IMG/VR virus record: IMGVR_UViG_3300013137_000037
Coordinates: 1-41,972 of that record
Strand: one strand, 5' to 3'
DNA: 41,972 nt
Source: a virus
Shown here: piece after piece, positions 1 through 14,062 of the stretch
Layout of the letters: each line of letters opens with the position of its first letter
Position numbering within the stretch: position 1 is the first letter of the stretch
The notes under the pieces: generated by a model
Told to the model about the DNA's origin: nothing
Seen by the model: only the letters and a program-made list of their open reading frames with translations
Database searches by the model: none
Program-made: the position numbers and the translations under genes

Positions 1-264
1 GAGGCGCGAGAATTGGCGCAGTCGATCGAAGACGAATGCTTCGACCCGTGGGAAATGAACAAAGAAAAGGGCCATTACGAAGGGTCGTTCGACGCACCAA
101 GAGCCGCCGCGCTGATTACCGCCTATTCGCGGACAATACCGAGGGCAATGCTAAAAGCACTTTGGAAAGCGGCCTATGACGAAGGAGGTATCCAACCGTT
201 TATAAGCAACCGAGACAGGGAAATTGCCAGGATCACTGAGCAATTCGGCTACCGCGTCGAGTAA
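1..264 (+). CDS. Hypothetical phage protein, 5' end outside window
   Basis: The frame is open from base 1, so the gene probably starts upstream; a TTG at 13 is the only start-like codon near the edge and has no convincing ribosome site. The C-terminal half has the pattern AAALITAxSRTxxRxML followed by a closing YGYxxE/FGYxxE. The same pattern recurs in the protein at 1292-1648, so the two are paralogues of one small accessory family. No catalytic motif is visible and I do not recognise a function. It lies in the GC-rich left arm, directly upstream of the gene at 271. Confidence 0.6.
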   Translation, partial: EARELAQSIEDECFDPWEMNKEKGHYEGSFDAPRAAALITAYSRTIPRAMLKALWKAAYDEGGIQPFISNRDREIARITEQFGYRVE

Positions 265-270
265 GGGGGA

Positions 271-582
271 ATGGAAATGACACTACAAGAAGCAAAGAAA
301 AAAACTAGGGCAGACGGATCGGTGAAGATCCTCCCCGGCGTATGGTTTGAAACTGGCACTTATGTCTTGAAAGAGACGGAAGCGTGGCACGATGCTGGTA
401 TGCCCGACGACTTTGGGGGTGGCTATACCTCAGCAGATATCATCCTTGACGAGATATACTGCAATACAGATAGCGGCGACTTTTCTTGTCCGACAGATGA
501 TGAGATAGTTGCCATGCTCAAGCAAGCAGAGGTTTCAATCCACGCGCCCGCGTGGGGCGCGACTATTATAATCAGACAGTAA
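271..582 (+). CDS. Hypothetical protein whose C-terminus is translated from a CRISPR repeat
   Basis: About 103 residues. ATG at 271 or 277 follows AAGGGGG at 263-269; the second ATG has the better spacing. The first ~87 residues look like an ordinary small soluble phage protein (WFETGTYVLKETEAW, then an acidic TDDEIVAMLKQAE stretch). The last ~16 residues, starting VSIHAPAWGAT, are the translation of the 32-nt repeat at 532-563; this peptide is a familiar artefact where type I-C repeats are read as protein. The repeat has therefore replaced or extended the original C-terminus, with the stop 19 nt beyond it. The protein could be functional with a foreign tail, or decayed. Function unknown. Confidence 0.55.
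   Translation: MEMTLQEAKKKTRADGSVKILPGVWFETGTYVLKETEAWHDAGMPDDFGGGYTSADIILDEIYCNTDSGDFSCPTDDEIVAMLKQAEVSIHAPAWGATIIIRQ
532..563 (-). CRISPR. Solitary type I-C-like CRISPR repeat
   Basis: On the minus strand the 32 nt begin GTCGCGCCCC and end GTGGATTGAAAC, the typical length and ends of type I-C repeats, including the 11-nt 5' handle of the mature crRNA. Inside is a perfect 7-bp hairpin, CGCGCCC / GGGCGCG, with loop CACGC. I found no second copy, no regularly spaced array and no cas gene in the window. It sits at the 3' end of the coding region 271-582, in reverse orientation to the surrounding genes. It may be a solitary repeat unit of the kind used as an RNA-based anti-CRISPR (Racr), a remnant of a mini-array, or a recombination scar. 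Identity as a repeat is strong; function is inferred. Confidence 0.85.
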
Positions 583-601
583 GAGAGGAGGAGGCCATAG
601 C

Positions 602-898
602 ATGAGCAATTACCCTTGGATCGACTGCACGGTCAAGATCGAGCATGACGGCCAGCCGCTCGATGTAACGATGCGTAAACCAGAAGGCGGGAGCAAATGG
701 GAATGTAAGACCATCCGCGTGCCATCGTCGTGCAAGAGCGACGCGCCGAGCGTGGGCATTTTCGACTGGCTCACGGTGCATACAAGTAAGGCAACGATGG
801 ACGAGATCGAACAGATTGCGCTCCGCGCAGTCATGGGCGACGGAGAAGCGCGCAAAGAAGCGGACGAAATAGAGAGATATGAGGAGGCTCATGGATGA
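602..898 (+). CDS. Hypothetical phage protein
   Basis: 98 residues with a strong ribosome site (GAGGAGGAGG, 587-596) before ATG 602. The N-terminal part looks like a small beta-rich domain (WIDCTVKIEHDG... WECKTIRVP); the C-terminal part is an acidic helix (ARKEADEIERYEE). The stop TGA overlaps the start of the next gene at 895. Not recognised; no motif supports a function. Confidence 0.6.
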   Translation: MSNYPWIDCTVKIEHDGQPLDVTMRKPEGGSKWECKTIRVPSSCKSDAPSVGIFDWLTVHTSKATMDEIEQIALRAVMGDGEARKEADEIERYEEAHG

Positions 899-1032
899 GT
901 GAAACCCTGTACGAGATCGTGGCGCTCAAGATGGTGACGAAGGAACGGCAAGGCCAGCTTTGGGGGGAGTCGGGAAAGAACCTGGTCGCGTATGTCGAAG
1001 CCCTCCGCAAAGAGCCGGAAGTCTCATTCTAA
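895..1032 (+). CDS. Small hypothetical protein (45 aa)
   Basis: ATG 895 overlaps the preceding TGA in an ATGA arrangement and is preceded by GAGGAGG (881-887). The product begins MSETLYEIVALKMV and ends KEPEVSF; it is short, mostly helical in appearance and has no motif. Its TAA overlaps the ATG of the next gene (TAATG), which supports translational coupling and a real gene. Confidence 0.5.
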   Translation: MSETLYEIVALKMVTKERQGQLWGESGKNLVAYVEALRKEPEVSF

Positions 1033-1295
1033 TGCGCAGGCCATACCTGATCGCCTTCACCGTGATCTTCCTTGCCCTCTGCGGTGCCGCCGCGTACCGG
1101 GCGACGCAACCCTACCAGATCACCGTGGATTACCCGCATAGCACGCTTTCCGAGATCGGGCTTTTCGTCTGCCTGCGCGTCGGGCCATTGCAGAGAACGC
1201 GTATGGCGTACTACGTGACGCCGCTTGAGTTTAAGAGCGATCTGATCGCGTGGAAGATGCGCGACGACGTGAAAGTAATGGAAGTGACGGAATGA
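1032..1295 (+). CDS. Small membrane-anchored hypothetical protein
   Basis: 87 residues from ATG 1032, chosen because it overlaps the preceding stop; a longer in-frame ORF from 960 would overlap that gene. The N-terminus, MRRP followed by ~16 hydrophobic residues (YLIAFTVIFLALCGAAAY), is a signal anchor or uncleaved signal peptide with two positive residues before it. The rest is a small beta-rich domain likely outside the cytoplasm. Function unknown. Confidence 0.5.
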   Translation: MRRPYLIAFTVIFLALCGAAAYRATQPYQITVDYPHSTLSEIGLFVCLRVGPLQRTRMAYYVTPLEFKSDLIAWKMRDDVKVMEVTE

Positions 1296-1648
1296 GCCAG
1301 ATCATCATCATCGATAGCGCAGAAGCGCTGGCGGAGCAGATACATCAGGAATACATCAAGAATCCGCTCGTCAACGTGAAACTTGCTGTTCTTAACTGCC
1401 TACATCCCATCGAGGTGCCGAGCGATGCGGTGGAGCTGGTCAAAATGATTCGATCAGGCTCACCGTTTTCTAGCGATGGAAACCCATATCTTTCTGACAC
1501 CGCCGCCGCCGCGCTGATCACTGCCCACTCGCGGACGGTGCTGAGGGTGATGCTCCATGACATCTACAGTTTATGGCCAAAGGATTATTTTACGCTTGAT
1601 AAAGGCATTGACGCGGCTATTGAAAAGTACGGCTACCACGCTGAGTAA
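1292..1648 (+). CDS. Hypothetical protein, paralogue of the 1-264 product
   Basis: 118 residues from ATG 1292, which overlaps the previous stop (ATGA). It begins MSQIIIIDSAEALAEQI and contains AAAALITAHSRTVLRVML and a terminal KYGYHAE, the same core as in the protein at 1-264. A third family member is not seen. The gene is GC-rich like its neighbours. No function recognised. Confidence 0.6.
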   Translation: MSQIIIIDSAEALAEQIHQEYIKNPLVNVKLAVLNCLHPIEVPSDAVELVKMIRSGSPFSSDGNPYLSDTAAAALITAHSRTVLRVMLHDIYSLWPKDYFTLDKGIDAAIEKYGYHAE

Positions 1649-1658
1649 GGGGGGAGAA

Positions 1659-2238
1659 ATGAGCAAGAAAGAAACCAAAGAATTTTTTAGGGTTTTAGGG
1701 GCTTGTAATGATGGTCAGGCGTGGGCCGAACAGGCAACTAGTCTTGAAACCGTGTGGAATACCTGCAAGCGCTCCGACTGGATGCTTTGGGCGCTTCGGC
1801 AGATCGGATTTCAGGATGATAGGAAAATGCGTCTTTATGCCTGCGCCTGTATCAGGAAAACTCCTCTTGCCGACGGCCACACGGCATGGGGATTTGCTTA
1901 CCGATGAGCGAAGTTGAAAGGCTATCGAGGTAGCCGAAATTTACGCCGAAGGAAAAGCAACGGCCGCAGCAAGGGCCGCCGCCTGCGCCGCAGCCTGGGA
2001 TGCAGCCTGGGCCGCCTGGGCCTGCACCGCAGCCTGGGATGCAGCCTGGGCCGCCTGGGCCTGCACCGCAGCTTGGGCCGCAGTTAGTGATACCACCTGG
2101 GCCGCCGCCTGGACTGTCGGCTGGGATGTAGCCTTGGATGCTCAAGCGGACATTTTACGCCAGTATATATCATGGGGCGAAGTTGAAACTGCGATTAAGG
2201 CATACCAGGAGAAACAAGGAGACCACGATGGAAATTGA
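1659..2238 (+). pseudogene. Broken Ala/Trp-repeat phage protein (RSDW family)
   Basis: Translation starts at ATG 1659 after GGGGGAG. The N-terminal half has ETVWNTCKRSDWMLWAL and RLYACACIRKTP, matching the intact AT-rich homologue at 36412-36972 (LEILWKTCVRSDWFLWVL, RKFACECVRRTP). At the GGGG run near 1886 one extra G moves the reading into a premature stop at 1905-1907. The original frame continues as DLLTDERS, then a TGA, then KAIEVAEIYAEGKA and a long Ala/Trp-rich segment (WDAAWAAWACTAAW) to TGA 2236. One indel and one nonsense codon are thus needed to restore a product of about 190 residues. It could be true decay or sequencing error. Confidence 0.65.
1990..2067. repeat. Exact tandem 39-bp repeat, two copies
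   Basis: Two perfect 39-bp copies (1990-2028 and 2029-2067) encode Ala/Trp-rich segments of the broken gene at 1659-2238. A shorter, diverged continuation follows. The exact identity points to recent slippage or a recombination-prone tract. Confidence 0.85.
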
Positions 2239-2515
2239 GGCTCGACTATTTGCTAGTATTTTGCTAGCAAAGACGCGAAAATCCTTTAGTGATGGATCAG
2301 TACAAATACTTGATGCCTACAGTGTGGAATCTGCCACAGACCTTATTGAATCCCGCGATGCAGCCATCCGCGCTGAAGCGGCAGAGGATGGAGCGATGGG
2401 TCTGCATATCTTTTTGCAGAATAGTTTTGATGCTAACGTGTTACAGCACATCACGCTAGAAGAGCTTAAAGACACTATTCGCGCCGTGATCTGCCACAAG
2501 GAGGTGGAAAAATGA
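2228..2515 (+). CDS. Hypothetical phage protein
   Basis: 95 residues from ATG 2228, preceded by AAGGAG at 2215-2220 and overlapping the end of the broken upstream gene. The product starts MEIEARLFASILLAKTRKSF and ends LEELKDTIRAVICHKEVEK. That last stretch is closely matched by the tail of the frameshifted gene at 3510-3660 (METLRAVICYKEVKG), so this C-terminal module is duplicated in the left arm. Function unknown. The stop overlaps the next start (ATGA at 2512). Confidence 0.6.
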   Translation: MEIEARLFASILLAKTRKSFSDGSVQILDAYSVESATDLIESRDAAIRAEAAEDGAMGLHIFLQNSFDANVLQHITLEELKDTIRAVICHKEVEK

Positions 2516-3513
2516 TCTGTAAAGAAATTCACTCGCAAGAGGAATACGAGGCTAACAAGGATTTTGGCGGAATCCTCGTCATCAAGTGTCAGGGAATCAT
2601 ACTCAGGGGGAACGCCAGCGCTGAACTCTGTGAGAACGCCAGCACTGAACTCTGGGGGAACGCCCACGCTGTACTCTGTGAGAACGCCAGCGCTATACTC
2701 AGGGATAATGCCCGAGCTGAACTCTGGGGGAACGCCAGCGCTGAACTCTGTGAGAACGCCAGCGCTATACTCAGGGATAACGCCCGAGCTGAACTCGGGG
2801 GGAACGCCCACGCTGTACTCAGGGAGAACGCCTGGGCTGAACTCAAGGAGAATACCCACGCTGAACTCTGTGAGAACGCCAGCGCTATACTCAGGGATAA
2901 CGCCCGAGCTGAACTCTGGGGGAACGCCCACGCTGTACTCTGTGAGAACGCCAGCGTCGAACTCAGGGAGAACGCCCACGCTGAACTCAGGGAGAATACC
3001 CGCGCTGTACTCAGGGAGAACGCCCACGCTGTACTCAGGGGGAACGCCAGCGCCGTGGCGCTCGATAATGCCTTCGCTCTTTTGTACGATCAGGCGAGTG
3101 CGAAAAAGTTAATGAACGCGACCGTCAAAAAGTACAAAGAGCGTGTCTATGACGCCAAAATCTTCGGCGCCATCACTGAACATCAGAAAGGAAAGATAGT
3201 GCTCTATAAGAGCGTGAATCCAGAAACGCTCTGTGACTTCCACACAGGTAAAATCAAATACGCCATCGGCACCGATGTCGAGTGTCCTGACTGGGATCCA
3301 GACCCCAACAGAGACTGTGGCGGAGGACTCCACCTCAGCCACACGGCTGCGAAGACTCAAGATTTCAACAGGGGCAAGATTCTCAAGTGCCTGGTTGACC
3401 CGAAAGATGTCGTTATCTATAGCGGCTCAATCGAAAAAGTCAGGTGCAGAAAGGTACATCCAATAGCCGTGGTTGATATTCACGGAAGAGAAATAATGGG
3501 AGGGGGAAAATGA
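2512..3513 (+). CDS. Octapeptide-repeat protein with conserved C-terminal phage domain
   Basis: 333 residues; ATG 2512 follows AAGGAGGTGG. After ~33 residues come 21 consecutive octads of the form N-A-x-A-x-L-x-x (for example NASAELCE, NAHAVLRE, NARAELWG), residues 34-201. Regular Ala/Leu spacing with Asn at turns suggests a parallel beta-solenoid, comparable in principle to pentapeptide or hexapeptide repeat folds; this is inference. The C-terminal ~130 residues are non-repetitive, with GKIKYAIGTDVECPDW, GGLHLS and KVRCRKVHPI motifs that recur in phage accessory proteins, to my knowledge of unknown function. A role such as structural spike, molecular mimic or scaffold is open. Confidence 0.7.
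   Translation: MICKEIHSQEEYEANKDFGGILVIKCQGIILRGNASAELCENASTELWGNAHAVLCENASAILRDNARAELWGNASAELCENASAILRDNARAELGGNAHAVLRENAWAELKENTHAELCENASAILRDNARAELWGNAHAVLCENASVELRENAHAELRENTRAVLRENAHAVLRGNASAVALDNAFALLYDQASAKKLMNATVKKYKERVYDAKIFGAITEHQKGKIVLYKSVNPETLCDFHTGKIKYAIGTDVECPDWDPDPNRDCGGGLHLSHTAAKTQDFNRGKILKCLVDPKDVVIYSGSIEKVRCRKVHPIAVVDIHGREIMGGGK
2611..3114. repeat. 24-bp tandem repeats encoding octapeptides
   Basis: Twenty-one 24-bp units, 20 of them starting with AAC or AAT for Asn. Copies differ mainly in the GAACTC/GTACTC/ATACTC core and in the TGTGAG/AGGGAT/TGGGGG ends, and several multi-unit blocks recur identically, so units have been duplicated and shuffled. The repeat keeps several other frames on both strands free of stops; those are shadows. 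Confidence 0.85.
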
Positions 3514-3660
3514 CTATGAACAAAGTCGCTGAATTGCTTATACCAGCAGGGGAGGATGCTGATAGGTGGCTTACAGAAGGGTTTGCCGAGGAATGACTTT
3601 CTGAAGATGCCCATGGAGACACTCCGCGCCGTGATCTGCTACAAGGAGGTGAAGGGATGA
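3510..3660 (+). pseudogene. Frameshifted small phage gene
   Basis: ATG 3510 overlaps the preceding stop and follows GGAGGGGG. It encodes MTMNKVAELLIPAGEDADRW and then stops at 3594-3596 after GFAEE. A one-base change near 3590 joins it to NDFLKMPMETLRAVICYKEVKG, ending at TGA 3658. That tail matches the end of the product of 2228-2515. The natural reading is one ~50-residue gene broken by a single-base deletion; a programmed frameshift is less likely since no slippery heptamer is evident. Confidence 0.5.
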
Positions 3661-3833
3661 AGATATCAGCAGCAATAAAAGGATGCGTGCAAGTCGGAGA
3701 GTATGAGTACCAAAATATTCTCAAAACATATCTTTTTGACAGCTCAACAAGCATTGACAACATCTTAAAGGTGACAGGTGAGAAAGACATTAGTCAGTGC
3801 AATTTAGCGCCAGTGGAGGAGGTGAAGAGATGA
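3657..3833 (+). CDS. Small hypothetical protein (58 aa)
   Basis: ATG 3657 is preceded by AAGGAGGTGAAGG and overlaps the preceding stop. The product starts MKISAAIKGCVQVGEYEYQN and ends APVEEVKR. No motif seen. Its own 3' end holds the GGAGGAGG ribosome site for the next gene, and the two overlap by 4 nt. Confidence 0.5.
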   Translation: MKISAAIKGCVQVGEYEYQNILKTYLFDSSTSIDNILKVTGEKDISQCNLAPVEEVKR

Positions 3834-4432
3834 GCGGAATGGACGACGCAGCGAATAGGCTTTGCCGAGAATTTGTTGATGCACAAAACAAGGAACGAAA
3901 AGCTGATAAAAGAAGGCCTGACAAAGTTGTATTTGAAAAAACGCCAGGCGGAAATCCAGAATCCTTAATGCACAAAGAGTACACTGGCGCCCAAATGCCT
4001 AACATGACGAAAGAGCAGCAGCAGATTGAGGCCGCAAAAGCGGCGATGGACAAGGCAACTCCTGGGCCGCTTGATGTGATATTTACTGGAACTATGGGCA
4101 AATACTTGGTAGAGAAAACAGAAGGCAGTGTACACAAACAGCTTGCCTATTGTGGGCTAGATGATGCGCTCCTATTCGCTGCCGCCCCCGCCCTTGCGCG
4201 CAGGGTGATTGAGCTGGAGGATCAGTTAAAGAAGTATGAACTAGCACTTGCAGAAACAGAAGCTCTTGTTTTTAGCCATGAAGGGCATATTACCAAACTT
4301 GAATCTAGTTTAGCCACGATTAAATCAGAATGTGCTGATAGGGCAGCACATTGGTTTCATAATTGGCCTATTACAATACTTGAATCGGAGTATGCTTCAC
4401 TTAGAGCGTTTATTATGGGAGAAGAAAAATGA
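3830..4432 (+). CDS. Hypothetical phage protein with ATPGPL module and C-terminal coiled coil
   Basis: 200 residues; start ATG 3830 is chosen over an upstream in-frame ATG at 3797 because it follows GGAGGAGGTGAAG and overlaps the preceding stop. Residues ~66-128 read QQQIEAAKAAMDKATPGPLDV ... DDALLFAAAPALARRVIELE in outline. This resembles the AxATPGPW...F.A.AP.....L..... arrangement of Ea22-like phage accessory proteins. The segment that follows (IELEDQLKKYELALAETEAL) looks like a coiled coil. GC content falls within this gene, so it spans the left-arm boundary. Exact role unknown. Confidence 0.6.
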   Translation: MSGMDDAANRLCREFVDAQNKERKADKRRPDKVVFEKTPGGNPESLMHKEYTGAQMPNMTKEQQQIEAAKAAMDKATPGPLDVIFTGTMGKYLVEKTEGSVHKQLAYCGLDDALLFAAAPALARRVIELEDQLKKYELALAETEALVFSHEGHITKLESSLATIKSECADRAAHWFHNWPITILESEYASLRAFIMGEEK

Positions 4433-8572: not shown

Positions 8573-8806
8573 ATGGCAGATGATGATATGATTACTAAAC
8601 TTAGTTCAGAAATAATATCAGTTTATAGTGAACAAATAATTTTAACTTTTGAACAGCTTAAATCAAGTATCATTAAAGGCATTTTCTTGAATCCTTCTGT
8701 GCAGCAGACATCATTTAATAATGGTATAAATTATGCAATAAGTATAATTGATTCAAATATAAAAATATTGAAAGAATTAACTGACTCTATAAAAAAGGGT
8801 AAGTGA
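8573..8806 (+). CDS. Small hypothetical helical protein
   Basis: 77 residues; ATG 8573 follows AAAAGGAGAAGGAG. The product, MADDDMITKLSSEIISVYSE and onward, is predicted helical throughout, Ile-rich and acidic at its N-terminus. It lies between primase and SNF2 helicase and overlaps the latter's start, so it may belong to the replication operon. No recognised family. Confidence 0.5.
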   Translation: MADDDMITKLSSEIISVYSEQIILTFEQLKSSIIKGIFLNPSVQQTSFNNGINYAISIIDSNIKILKELTDSIKKGK

Positions 8807-11301
8807 TGAAAGAGGTTGATTACAATAAGCCTATACTTATTATTAGATTTTCAGGGGATAATTTCAAAGAGAATCTTGATTTCGTTAGAATGATAAAAGG
8901 TTCTAGCTATGTCATGTCAGGAAGATACTGGACAGCCCCTGCTTTGACTGAAACAATAGATAAGTTAATTAAATCAGGATGGTCATTTACTCCTACTGCT
9001 AAAGCTTTGCTTACTAAAAAAGAAAACATAGAAGTAACTATTGATGAAAACAAACTTAAAGGCTTATTCCCTTATCAGATAGAAGGGATAAAATGGTTAC
9101 AGAAATATAATGGTATAGGTATTGTAGGCGACGAAATGGGCTGTATCTCAAAAGATGCTATTGTAACAATAAATAGAGGGGGTGCAAGCAAAAAATTAAC
9201 CTTAGCTGATGCATATAAATTTTATGAGAATCACAAAGAAATTCCTCTAAAAATAAGAGGTCTTAAAGGGGATAGATTTGGCCTTATTGACTTGAAAGGC
9301 ATTTACTATAGTGGAATCAAAGAAGTATTTGAACTTGTAACTGAATCAGGAAAGACTATTAAAGCAACTTCTGACCATAAATTTTTATTGCAATCAGGTA
9401 TCTGGTCTGAACTTTCATCCATAAAAATTAATGATTATGTAACAGTTAATGGCAAAGAAACATGCAAAATGTGTGGAACAGATAAAAACATAATAACATA
9501 TGAATTTGCTAAATTCAAAGGGTATTGCAAAAAATGTATGTACAAGCATCTTAGGGATCAGTGGGATTATGATGAAAAAAGAATAATAGGGGATGATGGA
9601 TATATTTATGTAATTGGAAAGAAATATCATAATTTTCATAGGAAATCCACAACTGGCTCTTTATTACACTTAATAATAATGGAAGAGCATTTAGGAAGAG
9701 AACTAAAGAAAGATGAAGAAGTGCATCACATTAATGGTATCAGAAGTGATAATAGGATAGAGAATTTACAACTTGTTACTCGAAGTGAACACAGGAAGAT
9801 ACATAAGTCAGCAGAAAAATTTGGTGATTTCATTCACAAGTCAGGTTCTATAGTTATAACTATACCTAAATATGAAAAAATAGTTTTAATAAATAAAATT
9901 GGTTTCGAGGACACTTATGATGTTTCAGTTGAAGGGGAATACCATAATTTTATAGCAAATAGTTTTGTTGTTCACAACTGCGGAAAGACAGTACAGGCTA
10001 TTGGATATTGTAAGATAAACCCTAAGAAAAGGCCTGTATTAGTGATATGCCCTGCTTCAATTAAACTTAATTGGGCAAGGGAAATAGTTACTTGGTCAGG
10101 GGAAACTGATATAAATGTAATCTATGGTTCTAATCCTTATCCTTTACAGAAGAGTGATTGGTATATAGCTAACTATGATATTCTTGTAAAAAGAGGGGCA
10201 AAAGATAATAAAGGAAAAACTGTAATAGAAGGTTGGGCAAAAGAATTTGAAAAAATAGGGATAAAAGTTGTAATAGTAGATGAATGCCAATTTATTTCTA
10301 ATGAGAAGGCTCTTCGCACTAAAGCTGTAAAGTATCTAAATAAACATCTTAAAAATTGTAGTTTCATAGGATTATCAGGGACGCCTATTAGGAATAGGCC
10401 TAGTGAGTTTTTTACTATACTCAATCTTATTTCACCTGAGGTATTCCCTAATAGATGGAGATTTCTTAATAGATACTGTGCACCTCGATTTAATGGATTT
10501 GGCTGGTCTTTTGATGGGGCTTCTAATATAGAGGAACTTCATGAACTAATACAACCTTACATGATCCGTAGACTAAAATCAGAAGTTCTTTCTCAGCTTC
10601 CTCCTAAGATAAAATCAATAGTGCCTCTTGAGTTAGAAGAAGTAGCAAGAAAGAATTATGAAGATGCTGAGGGTGAATTTCAAGAATGGCTTGATAAAAA
10701 TTTGAATAACCTAAAGGCTCAACAAGATCAGATGGAGAAACTAAAACAACTTGCTTATCTTTCTAAGCGTAATTCAATGATGCAATGGATAGAAGATTTC
10801 CTTTCATCAGGGGAGAAACTTGTAATTTTTGCTTTCCATCACATTGCTATTGAGGATTTAGTTTCTAAGTTTAGGAACAATTGCGTAAGAATTGATGGAG
10901 GGACACCACAAAAAGAAAGGCAAGTAGCTATTGATAAATTCCAATCTGATCCTTCTATAAATCTATTTATTGGACAGATAACTGCAGCAGGAATAGGAAT
11001 TGATGGATTGCAGAATGTGTGCTCTAATGTAGTTTTCACAGAGTTAATGTGGACTCCATCAGATCATAGCCAAGCTGAAGATAGACTGCATAGAATGAAG
11101 AAAGATGGTAAGTATGAAAATCAAGTTACTGCTTACTATCTTATTGCTGTAGGAACAATAGAAGATCGCATTGTTAGGATGCTTACTTCAAAAAGCAAAA
11201 ATTTAGGGAAAATACTTGATGGAGAGGAAGTAAAATTCTTTGATAAAGAATCTACTGATTTGATTAGAAGTATTGCAAGTCAGTATAGGAGTAGGAAATG
11301 A
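8806..11301 (+). CDS. SNF2-type DEAD-like helicase interrupted by an intein
   Basis: 831 residues from ATG 8806 (a GTG at 8803 is equally possible); the mature extein is ~552 residues. It is an ATP-driven DNA translocase of the SNF2/SMARCAL1-like group, likely acting at forks or on annealed strands. The P-loop reads DEMG | CGKT after intein removal. Later come VICPASIKLNW, the Walker B variant VVIVDECQ, SGTPIRNRP, and the C-terminal motif VI region QAEDRLHRMKK. The N-terminal ~100 residues resemble the short accessory region seen before SNF2 cores. The intein occupies residues 113-391. Splicing is needed for an active ATPase site. Confidence 0.88.
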   Translation: MKEVDYNKPILIIRFSGDNFKENLDFVRMIKGSSYVMSGRYWTAPALTETIDKLIKSGWSFTPTAKALLTKKENIEVTIDENKLKGLFPYQIEGIKWLQKYNGIGIVGDEMGCISKDAIVTINRGGASKKLTLADAYKFYENHKEIPLKIRGLKGDRFGLIDLKGIYYSGIKEVFELVTESGKTIKATSDHKFLLQSGIWSELSSIKINDYVTVNGKETCKMCGTDKNIITYEFAKFKGYCKKCMYKHLRDQWDYDEKRIIGDDGYIYVIGKKYHNFHRKSTTGSLLHLIIMEEHLGRELKKDEEVHHINGIRSDNRIENLQLVTRSEHRKIHKSAEKFGDFIHKSGSIVITIPKYEKIVLINKIGFEDTYDVSVEGEYHNFIANSFVVHNCGKTVQAIGYCKINPKKRPVLVICPASIKLNWAREIVTWSGETDINVIYGSNPYPLQKSDWYIANYDILVKRGAKDNKGKTVIEGWAKEFEKIGIKVVIVDECQFISNEKALRTKAVKYLNKHLKNCSFIGLSGTPIRNRPSEFFTILNLISPEVFPNRWRFLNRYCAPRFNGFGWSFDGASNIEELHELIQPYMIRRLKSEVLSQLPPKIKSIVPLELEEVARKNYEDAEGEFQEWLDKNLNNLKAQQDQMEKLKQLAYLSKRNSMMQWIEDFLSSGEKLVIFAFHHIAIEDLVSKFRNNCVRIDGGTPQKERQVAIDKFQSDPSINLFIGQITAAGIGIDGLQNVCSNVVFTELMWTPSDHSQAEDRLHRMKKDGKYENQVTAYYLIAVGTIEDRIVRMLTSKSKNLGKILDGEEVKFFDKESTDLIRSIASQYRSRK
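9142..9978 (+). mobile_element. Intein with HNH endonuclease in SNF2 P-loop
   Basis: 279 residues. It starts with Cys (CISKDAIVTI) and ends with His-Asn before a Cys +1 extein residue (VVHN|C). Block B-like TSDHKFLL and the late FEDTYDVSVEGEYHNFIANS region are typical splicing blocks. Between them is a CxxC...CxxC ribbon (CKMC, CKKC) and an HNH-type homing nuclease core EVHHINGIRSDNRIENL. All residues expected for splicing and for homing are visible, so the element looks active. Confidence 0.9.
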
Positions 11302-11426
11302 AAAAACAGTTTTCTGTTACTATAATAGTAGAGAAGGCGTTTAGATATTCATCTTTGGAAACTGCTAAAAGAGCAGCTTTATCTTTTAGTGGAGTAATAT
11401 ATCCAATGACAAAGGTTGATATGTGA
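11298..11426 (+). CDS. Small hypothetical protein (42 aa)
   Basis: ATG 11298 overlaps the helicase stop and the TGA at 11424 overlaps the GTG start of the DnaB-type gene, so this tiny frame exactly fills the gap. The product starts MKKQFSVTIIVEKAFRYSSL. A beta-strand then helix pattern is visible; function unknown. Confidence 0.45.
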   Translation: MKKQFSVTIIVEKAFRYSSLETAKRAALSFSGVIYPMTKVDM

Positions 11427-14062
11427 AAATTAAAAAGATAGACTTGAACCCTGAAAAGAAAATATTAACTAATCTGATTGTATCAGATGATTTTGCTAGA
11501 CAGATAATGCCAATATTTATTCCTAATTATATGAAGTCTAGTTTCTGTAGAATTGTAGGTGATTGGATTCTAGAATATTATAATAATTTCAAATGCGCTC
11601 CTGGCAAGACTATACAAGATATTTATAGGGATAAAAGAGGGGCTGTAAGAGATGAAGAGGACAGCGATCTTATAGCTGATTTTCTTCTCAAACTCTCTAT
11701 AGATTATGAAAATTCTATTCCTTCTAATACTGAATATTCTGCTAGGCAAGCTGAACGTTATCTTAAAACAAGGTCAATAGAAGTTCTTATAGAAGATTTG
11801 CAAGATTCTGTACAGAAGAATGACCCTCTAACTGGTGAGCAGAGAATAACTAAATATAATAGGGTAGAAAGAGCGACTGGAGAAGGAGTTTCCTTAAAGA
11901 ATGATACTCAAGAGATTATTGATGCTTTTGATGAAGAAGAAGAACTTTTATTCAGGTTCCCTGGAGCAGTAGGTGAAGTAATAGGGGATTTGCATAGAGG
12001 TGATTTCTTTTCATTTATGGCGCCAATGAAACGAGGAAAATGCTTAAGTAAAGATAGTGAGATACTTTTATCATCAGGAGAAGTGGTTACAATAGAGAAT
12101 TTAGTTGGTAGGGAAAATATTGAGGCAATTTCTCTTAATGATGAAGGCAAATTTGAAATTTCTAAGGTAGGGGAAGTCTATGATAATGGTATCAAAAAAA
12201 TATATGAAGTTGTAACTCGAACAGGAAGGATGTTAAAAGTTACCTCAAATCATCCTTTATATTCTTTTGACAAAAAATGGATTTCAATAAATGAAGGCCT
12301 TTGTAAAGGTGATTTTATAGCAGTTCCTAGAAAAATAGATTTCTTTGGTAATGAAGAAATACCTATTGACCATGTTAGGATCATGGCATATTTATTAGCT
12401 GATGGCTGTTTAGGTGGAAGCACACCAACTTATACAAAATTAGATAAAAAAATGAAGAATGAGGTTATAAGAATTACAGAATCATTTGGTGATAAAGTTT
12501 TTGAGATAGATGAACTTTCAATAAGTTTATCAAAAGGTCATGGATGCCATGGCCCAGGTAAATCAAATATAAGCAAAATATTAGATTTATATAATTTTAA
12601 GCGTTGCAAATCCATTTATAAGGAAATTCCACCTATAATTTTCAGATTAAAGAAGGAACTTGTAAGGGAATTTCTTAGAATTTTATTTTCTGGAGATGGC
12701 ACAATTTATAAATTTGGAATTGAGTATGCATCAAGTAGCCCTGTTTTTATTAAACAAGTGCAACATCTTCTTATAAGATTTGGTATAGTCTCAAAAATAG
12801 ATTATTGTAATGGCAAATTCTGTAGTAATTTGTGTATCAGAGATTCTAAACATATTTTGAAGTATATAGATGAAATAGGCTTTTTTGGTAAAAAAGAAGA
12901 AAGGACTAAAGAGATTATTGAGGAAATTAAAGTTAAAAAGAGCAGAAGTTATCTTGATATAATACCAGGTTCTTATAGAGAAGTGATAAAGGAGAAGATA
13001 AGATCAAGATTGGGAGTGGATTTAGAAATAAAAGATTTCTTTATGTGGGCACCTAAAAATAATGGAAATATAACTTGTGACTATTTAAGAAAATTTAATT
13101 CATTGTTTTGTGATGAGGAAATAAGCATAATGCTTAATTCTGATATACTTTGGGACAAGATAATATCCATTAAATATGTAGGTGAAGAACATACTTATGA
13201 TTTAAGTATTCCTAAATATCATAATTTTATAGCAAATGATATCTGTGCACACAATACCTGGTATCTTTGGTATACAAGCGAAATAGCTATGAAGAAAGGA
13301 TTAAAAGTTGCCTTCTTTACAGGGGAAATGACTAAAAGACAGCTTATCCGTAGAGCTTGGAGATCAATAGTAGGCCAGCCTAAGACAGCAAGAACCATAA
13401 AAATACCTTACTTTGAAGAATCTCTTAAATCAAAAGGGAAGTTTGAAATAAAAGTGAGAGAAGAAGATAGAGAAGGTATAGATGTAAGCAAAATCAAAAA
13501 ACAGCAGATAAAAATGAAGAGAATGATTCGTAGTGGAGATATTAGGATAATACAAATTCCTGGCTATGAAACAACTGTAAAGGATATTGAAGCTCATCTT
13601 GATAATATGGAACATTATGATAATTATCTTGCTGATGTAGTAATAATAGACTATGCTGATCTTCTAATGGCAGATAAAAGGGCTGGCAATGAGCATAGGC
13701 ATCAGTTAGATAATATTTGGAAAGGTTTAAGGAGGATAAGCCAAAGTAGAAATATACTATTAGTAACAGCTTCTCAAACCGCTAAAGAAACCTTTGATAG
13801 GGATATACGAAGAGGAGATGCCGCTGAAGATATTAGGAAGATAGCTCATGTTACTGCTGCTGTAGGGATAAATCAAAAGCATAGTGAAATTGACAAAGGG
13901 ATAATAAGAATAAGCCAATTAGTAGTTCGTGAAGATAGACCTGTAACTGACCAAGCAGTAGTTCTTCAATGTCTTGATATAGGAAGGCCTTGTATTGATA
14001 GCAAGTTCCATAAAGATATGATACAATCAGAAGAACCGGCAAGAGAAGAAAGGAGGAAATAG
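11423..14062 (+). CDS. dnaB: DnaB-type replicative helicase interrupted by an intein
   Basis: 879 residues from GTG 11423; after removal of a 405-residue intein the extein is ~474 residues, the usual DnaB length. It is the hexameric fork helicase, unwinding DNA 5' to 3' and recruiting primase. The N-terminal helical domain covers ~150 residues. The RecA-like ATPase has its P-loop split (APMKRGK | T), then FFTGEMTKRQLIRRAW, Walker B VVIIDYADLL, the sensor-like LLVTASQTAKETFDRD, and a final VREDRPVTDQAVV. The P-loop Ala-Pro-Met differs from the canonical GxPxxGKT but keeps Gly-Lys-Thr. It starts inside the stop of the small gene before it. Confidence 0.88.
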   Translation: MKIKKIDLNPEKKILTNLIVSDDFARQIMPIFIPNYMKSSFCRIVGDWILEYYNNFKCAPGKTIQDIYRDKRGAVRDEEDSDLIADFLLKLSIDYENSIPSNTEYSARQAERYLKTRSIEVLIEDLQDSVQKNDPLTGEQRITKYNRVERATGEGVSLKNDTQEIIDAFDEEEELLFRFPGAVGEVIGDLHRGDFFSFMAPMKRGKCLSKDSEILLSSGEVVTIENLVGRENIEAISLNDEGKFEISKVGEVYDNGIKKIYEVVTRTGRMLKVTSNHPLYSFDKKWISINEGLCKGDFIAVPRKIDFFGNEEIPIDHVRIMAYLLADGCLGGSTPTYTKLDKKMKNEVIRITESFGDKVFEIDELSISLSKGHGCHGPGKSNISKILDLYNFKRCKSIYKEIPPIIFRLKKELVREFLRILFSGDGTIYKFGIEYASSSPVFIKQVQHLLIRFGIVSKIDYCNGKFCSNLCIRDSKHILKYIDEIGFFGKKEERTKEIIEEIKVKKSRSYLDIIPGSYREVIKEKIRSRLGVDLEIKDFFMWAPKNNGNITCDYLRKFNSLFCDEEISIMLNSDILWDKIISIKYVGEEHTYDLSIPKYHNFIANDICAHNTWYLWYTSEIAMKKGLKVAFFTGEMTKRQLIRRAWRSIVGQPKTARTIKIPYFEESLKSKGKFEIKVREEDREGIDVSKIKKQQIKMKRMIRSGDIRIIQIPGYETTVKDIEAHLDNMEHYDNYLADVVIIDYADLLMADKRAGNEHRHQLDNIWKGLRRISQSRNILLVTASQTAKETFDRDIRRGDAAEDIRKIAHVTAAVGINQKHSEIDKGIIRISQLVVREDRPVTDQAVVLQCLDIGRPCIDSKFHKDMIQSEEPAREERRK
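12041..13255 (+). mobile_element. Intein with LAGLIDADG endonuclease in DnaB P-loop
   Basis: 405 residues, from Cys (CLSKDSEILL) to His-Asn (CAHN) before a Thr +1 residue. Block B is seen as TSNHPLYSF, and the terminal splice blocks as EEHTYDLSIPKYHNFIAN. The central homing domain has two LAGLIDADG-type motifs, LLADGCLGG and LFSGDGTIY, both with the catalytic acidic residue. Unlike the SNF2 intein it uses a different nuclease family, so the two arrived independently. Confidence 0.9.

What the first reader, a model, noticed from the sequence alone, without database searches (positions are those of the whole stretch)
532..563. Solitary type I-C-like CRISPR repeat in a phage gene: candidate RNA anti-CRISPR
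Seen directly: a 32-nt element (minus strand begins GTCGCGCCCC, ends GTGGATTGAAAC) with a perfect 7-bp hairpin and the I-C 5' handle, present once, with no spacer, second repeat or cas gene. Established: some phages carry solitary repeat units that mimic crRNA repeats and trap Cas proteins (Racrs). Inference: this unit could bind host Cas5c or the Cascade complex. Caveat: the crRNA-sense strand is opposite to the gene direction, so an antisense transcript would be needed; the + strand RNA would keep the hairpin but not the handle.
Basis: partly seen in the sequence, partly recalled or inferred. Interest (0 to 1): 0.9.

Follow-up and report, generated by a model that had tools for sequence, protein, structure and literature searches.

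The report
Lone CRISPR repeat in a phage
A phage carries one perfect, isolated copy of a bacterial type I-C CRISPR repeat between two small genes; phages are known to use such copies as RNA decoys against CRISPR, but this one faces the wrong way for the phage's transcription, so whether it works as a decoy is open.

Summary
Window 532-563 (-) is exactly GTCGCGCCCCACGCGGGCGCGTGGATTGAAAC, present once, with no second repeat nearby. The same 32-mer forms arrays in dozens of genomes. The two such loci checked have Cas8c/Cas7c/Cas4c/Cas1c beside the array, so it is a real I-C repeat. A reversed decoy pattern finds nothing in 2.9 million viral contigs, while I-C consensus patterns find 90 stretches. 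Chance is excluded.

It is one of at least 54 distinct solitary I-C repeats collected here from viral contigs. As a class these lie at gene junctions, mostly in the sense of local genes (37 sense: 8 antisense, p=1.5e-5), which supports RNA-level function for the class. This copy is antisense, has no complete sigma-70-type promoter, and is read through by the last 17 codons of ORF 271-582. Removing the 32 bases lets that ORF run on to an ATGA overlap with the next gene, which suggests a precise insertion (suggestive only).

Best reading: a captured I-C repeat (solitary repeat unit), possibly a Racr that needs an antisense transcript. Racr function is not shown. New member of a known kind, in an atypical place.

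The parts
532..563 (-). Solitary type I-C CRISPR repeat (crRNA sense on the minus strand): 7-bp stem-loop then the 3' GTGGATTGAAAC handle region
271..582 (+). 103-aa ORF without detectable relatives; its last 17 codons read through the repeat
   Evidence: codon statistics favour this frame for 271-531
564..605 (+). Putative original gene end: with 532-563 left out the ORF continues YYNQTVREEEAIA and stops at TGA 603-605, in a 4-bp ATGA overlap with the next start
   Evidence: the same -4 overlap is used at 895, 1292 and 2512
602..898 (+). Next gene (98 aa, unknown), AGGAGG-type ribosome site between the repeat and its ATG
565..570 (-). TATAAT one base upstream of the repeat on the crRNA-sense strand; no -35 partner, and a start from it would fall inside the repeat, so a weak promoter candidate
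   Evidence: sequence
1..264 (+). Paralogue of 1292-1648, on the left of the repeat (shows both flanks belong to one genome)
1292..1648 (+). Paralogue of 1-264, on the right of the repeat

Best explanation
A full-length type I-C repeat, taken from a bacterial CRISPR array, was inserted as an exact 32-bp unit at the junction between two small accessory genes of a phage with a T4-like replication module (identity and location shown; insertion inferred). If it works, it works like an RNA anti-CRISPR: an antisense RNA through 563->532 would fold the repeat stem, be bound and cut by host Cas5c at the base of the stem, and give a product that ends in the stem-loop and/or one that begins with the 5' handle, both competing with true crRNAs for Cas5c/Cas7c/Cas8c (inferred from RacrIC1 and RacrIF1). 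The identity as a solitary I-C repeat unit is near certain; the figure below is for the repeat-decoy function.
For: Exact match to array repeats of many genomes, beside I-C cas genes where checked. Chance excluded. Both flanks belong to one genome (paralogues on either side). At least 54 distinct viral solitary I-C repeats lie at gene junctions (26 of 55 within 80 nt of a start codon with a ribosome site) and keep the stem (53 of 54 with a standard or G-U pair at the variable stem position). Strong sense-strand bias of the class, 37:8, p=1.5e-5, points to function as RNA for the class. RacrIC1 and other solitary units inhibit CRISPR experimentally (PMC10651486).
Against: This copy is antisense to all surrounding genes, in the minority orientation of the class. 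No complete sigma-70-type promoter on the minus strand; the one TATAAT would start RNA inside the repeat. No known acr-like gene nearby. No spacer from the arrays held matches this phage above decoy level, and the host is unknown. The perfect identity to array repeats may mean only that the insertion is recent.
Confidence: 0.4

Rival explanations
1. A functionless scar: the repeat came in by recent recombination with a host I-C array and persists because it sits harmlessly at a gene end.
For: Antisense placement, exact identity to host repeats (no drift), no convincing promoter, insertion that only changes the last codons of an orphan ORF.
Against: The class as a whole shows strand bias and stem maintenance, which neutral scars would not; similar units recur in many phages and are kept in related contigs (L109/L144, L133/L139, L096/L113/L141).
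Confidence: 0.35
2. An anti-repeat: the plus-strand mRNA carries the perfect reverse complement of the host repeat and pairs with pre-crRNA, hiding repeats from Cas5c.
For: The plus strand is the coding strand here and 32 nt are fully complementary to I-C repeats; 8 of 45 orientable units in the class are antisense.
Against: Plus-strand RNA folds its own strong stem, which would compete with pairing; the class prefers the sense orientation; no precedent known to me for I-C.
Confidence: 0.07
3. A DNA-level site: the repeat serves recombination or integration of phage DNA at host CRISPR arrays.
For: Named in the literature as an alternative role for repeat-like sequences in viruses (PMC10651486 discussion).
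Against: No integrase found among the genes at 1-4 kb; the strand bias of the class argues for RNA.
Confidence: 0.08
4. Assembly artefact: a collapsed array or a graph join between phage and host array.
For: Metagenomic contig; two other contigs show a repeat between two copies of a spacer-sized sequence (L103, L086), the pattern such a join would give.
Against: The window has no flank duplication (longest shared flank string 5 nt). Paralogues and the same gene style lie on both sides, and the gap closes into a continuous ORF.
Confidence: 0.1

Closest known systems
Solitary repeat units (SRUs) of viruses; the tested ones are RNA anti-CRISPRs (Racrs), e.g. RacrIC1 of a Bifidobacterium prophage (PMC10651486)
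   Same: One full CRISPR repeat of a defined subtype in a phage, no second repeat, no cas genes, stem and handle intact
   Different: RacrIC1 is 11 nt downstream of an AcrIC5 gene and co-transcribed with it. This copy is antisense to its operon, overlaps an ORF end, and has no recognised acr neighbour or promoter
Viral CRISPR mini-arrays (PMC6858448, PMC11656645)
   Same: Host-type repeats carried by a virus without cas genes
   Different: Mini-arrays have one or two spacers between repeats; here there is a single repeat and no spacer
Host type I-C CRISPR arrays (e.g. Thiorhodospira sibirica L038, a Bacteroidetes MAG L025)
   Same: Identical 32-nt repeat
   Different: No array, leader or cas genes

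Membership tests
Type I-C CRISPR repeat | Sequence identical to repeats of arrays beside I-C cas genes | tested here: met
Solitary repeat unit (SRU) | Full-length match with no other full or partial repeat within about 100 bp | tested here: met
Solitary repeat unit (SRU) | Intergenic position (filter of the published search, not a functional criterion) | tested here: not met
   ORF 271-582 covers it, though only its last 17 codons, and it lies at a gene junction
Racr | Expressed as RNA in the crRNA sense | not testable with these tools
   No RNA data; gene direction is opposite
Racr | Promoter within about 250 bp upstream of the unit | tested here: inconclusive
   No sigma-70-type site in 1-3000; a lone TATAAT abuts the repeat; host promoter type unknown
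Racr | Host with a matching CRISPR-Cas subtype | not testable with these tools
   Host unknown; spacers of the arrays held do not match
Racr | Neighbouring acr gene (common, not required) | tested here: inconclusive
   No family hits for the small ORFs; acr genes are poorly covered by profiles
Racr | Inhibits CRISPR-Cas | not testable with these tools
   Needs an experiment
Viral CRISPR mini-array | At least two repeats and a spacer | tested here: not met

The most novel reading that the evidence does not exclude
The plus-strand mRNA acts as an anti-repeat: an RNA fully complementary to the host I-C repeat that pairs with pre-crRNA and blocks Cas5c processing, an antisense counterpart of Racrs.
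Probability: 0.07. Interest if true: 0.8.

Novelty: new member of a known kind. Interest (0 to 1): 0.35.

Why it matters
Solitary repeats are a recognised way for phages to disarm CRISPR, but the published survey masked ORFs and so would have left out units that overlap gene ends, like this one. The small census made here suggests that viral I-C solitary repeats are oriented with transcription, which supports RNA decoys carried inside operons. It also marks the antisense ones, such as this, as the cases that could tell neutral capture from function.

Tried and rejected
Relatives of P0001 and of the next gene, sought for an empty site: none. Phages that share the 1292-1648 family (L160, L161) lack both P0001 and the repeat. 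Spacer matches to the window: best 23/25, at or near decoy level, rejected. Mini-array: no second repeat. Chance: rejected. Chimera of two genomes joined at the repeat: rejected by the paralogues on both sides. A break at the GC shift near 4 kb: the shift is gradual and runs through gene 3797-4432. Promoter enrichment upstream of the class: none by a sigma-70 scan. Plasmid records: no match to 440-700. A known RNA family: none at threshold.

Full report
What is there. The window is a single virus record of 41,972 bases. At 532-563, minus strand, lies GTCGCGCCCCACGCGGGCGCGTGGATTGAAAC, exact and once. The fold is not unusually stable for its composition (z -1.7); the case for a CRISPR repeat rests on sequence identity, not on the hairpin. 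The same 32-mer was found in 63 stretches of genome contigs, mostly multi-copy arrays. In the two loci checked, Thiorhodospira sibirica (L038) and a Bacteroidetes MAG (L025), the neighbouring genes are Cas8c, Cas7c, Cas4c and Cas1c. It is therefore a type I-C repeat.

Chance. I-C consensus patterns find 20 and 70 stretches in viral contigs; the reversed pattern finds none.

Surroundings. All likely genes in the window run on the plus strand and most have purine-rich ribosome sites. The first ~4 kb is 54% GC and holds small orphan genes plus an RIIB-like repeat protein. The rest is about 33% GC and holds helicase and DnaB-type genes with inteins, thymidylate synthase, DNA polymerase, a UvsX-like recombinase and a possible single-strand-binding protein. 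The change is gradual. The repeat covers part of the last 17 codons of ORF 271-582, which has no relatives in the searches made beyond the repeat-coded stretch itself. A paralogous pair (1-264 and 1292-1648; 42% identity in the alignment) lies on both sides, so the repeat is not a join between two genomes.

Insertion. The repeat starts at a codon boundary. Leaving it out, the ORF reads on for 13 codons and stops at TGA 603-605, a 4-bp ATGA overlap with the next gene. That junction type also occurs at 895, 1292 and 2512. By chance a frame would do this about one time in six (estimate: one frame in three times about one half for no earlier stop), so this is suggestive only. No empty site could be found.

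The class. After removing arrays, contig ends and duplicates, 54-56 solitary I-C repeats remain in the viral contigs. 26 of 55 lie within 80 nt of a start codon with a ribosome site, 15 in the sense of that gene and 11 in the mirror orientation, the window among the latter. Against local genes within 5 kb, 37 are sense and 8 antisense (p=1.5e-5); other settings give p from 0.02 to 0.0002. The gene calls are crude (longest ORFs), but the test is symmetrical. The variable stem position keeps a standard or G-U pair in 53 of 54, as host repeats also do. Where sense genes directly downstream could be named they include a head decoration protein, a tail fibre and an SbcC-like protein, so the units ride in ordinary operons. 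This suggests that Cas5c could cut such decoys out of mRNA without a dedicated promoter (inference). The window copy is antisense and cannot use that route.

Interpretation. The solitary-repeat identity is near certain; the Racr function is possible (0.4) and untested. A neutral scar is nearly as likely (0.35). The published survey concentrated on intergenic units and treated intragenic matches as probable false positives (PMC10651486), so this one would have been masked.

Limits. The host is unknown, no RNA data are available, and there are no close relatives. The orientation figures come from simple scripts of my own. The chance estimates are arithmetic.

Noticed in passing
L103:8700-8830 and L086:4810-4930: A solitary I-C repeat lies between two identical copies of a spacer-sized sequence (34 and 33 nt): protospacer-repeat-protospacer. 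Either an assembly-graph join with a host array, or real recombination at a spacer.
   Followed up: partly
viral loci L003, L071, L074, L093, L099, L107, L108, L112, L135, L136: Solitary I-C repeats sit 10-60 nt upstream of the start codon of downstream genes in the same sense, including head decoration, tail fibre and SbcC-like genes, i.e. in mRNA leaders.
   Followed up: partly
L091:6125, L093:358 and 955 (one 50-kb contig): Three dispersed solitary I-C repeats in one viral contig; two share about 22 nt directly upstream (ggtgatatcttcartatctgcg) but differ downstream.
   Followed up: no
L109:6902 and L144:3375: Two related phages keep the same repeat and upstream flank (97% identical), while the sequence directly downstream differs by inserted or lost stretches.
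   Followed up: no
L015:3232 and L046:5064 (Desulforamulus putei): A solitary exact I-C repeat within a longer sequence (about 90 nt shared on each side as far as was shown) at two places of the same genome, as if carried by a mobile element.
   Followed up: no
window 1-4400 versus the rest: 54% GC accessory region grading into 33% GC replication genes, without a sharp break.
   Followed up: partly
window 8803-14062: Two adjacent genes (SNF2-type helicase, DnaB-like helicase) each carry an intein with a homing endonuclease domain (HNH, LAGLIDADG).
   Followed up: no
window 2512-3513: Protein with about 20 tandem 8-residue repeats (NASAELCE-like) fused to a region similar to RIIB.
   Followed up: no
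window 470-613, + strand: Plus-strand RNA around the repeat folds unusually well (z -2.8 to -4.2), pairing 505-520 with the start region of the gene at 602; part of this stem exists without the repeat.
   Followed up: partly
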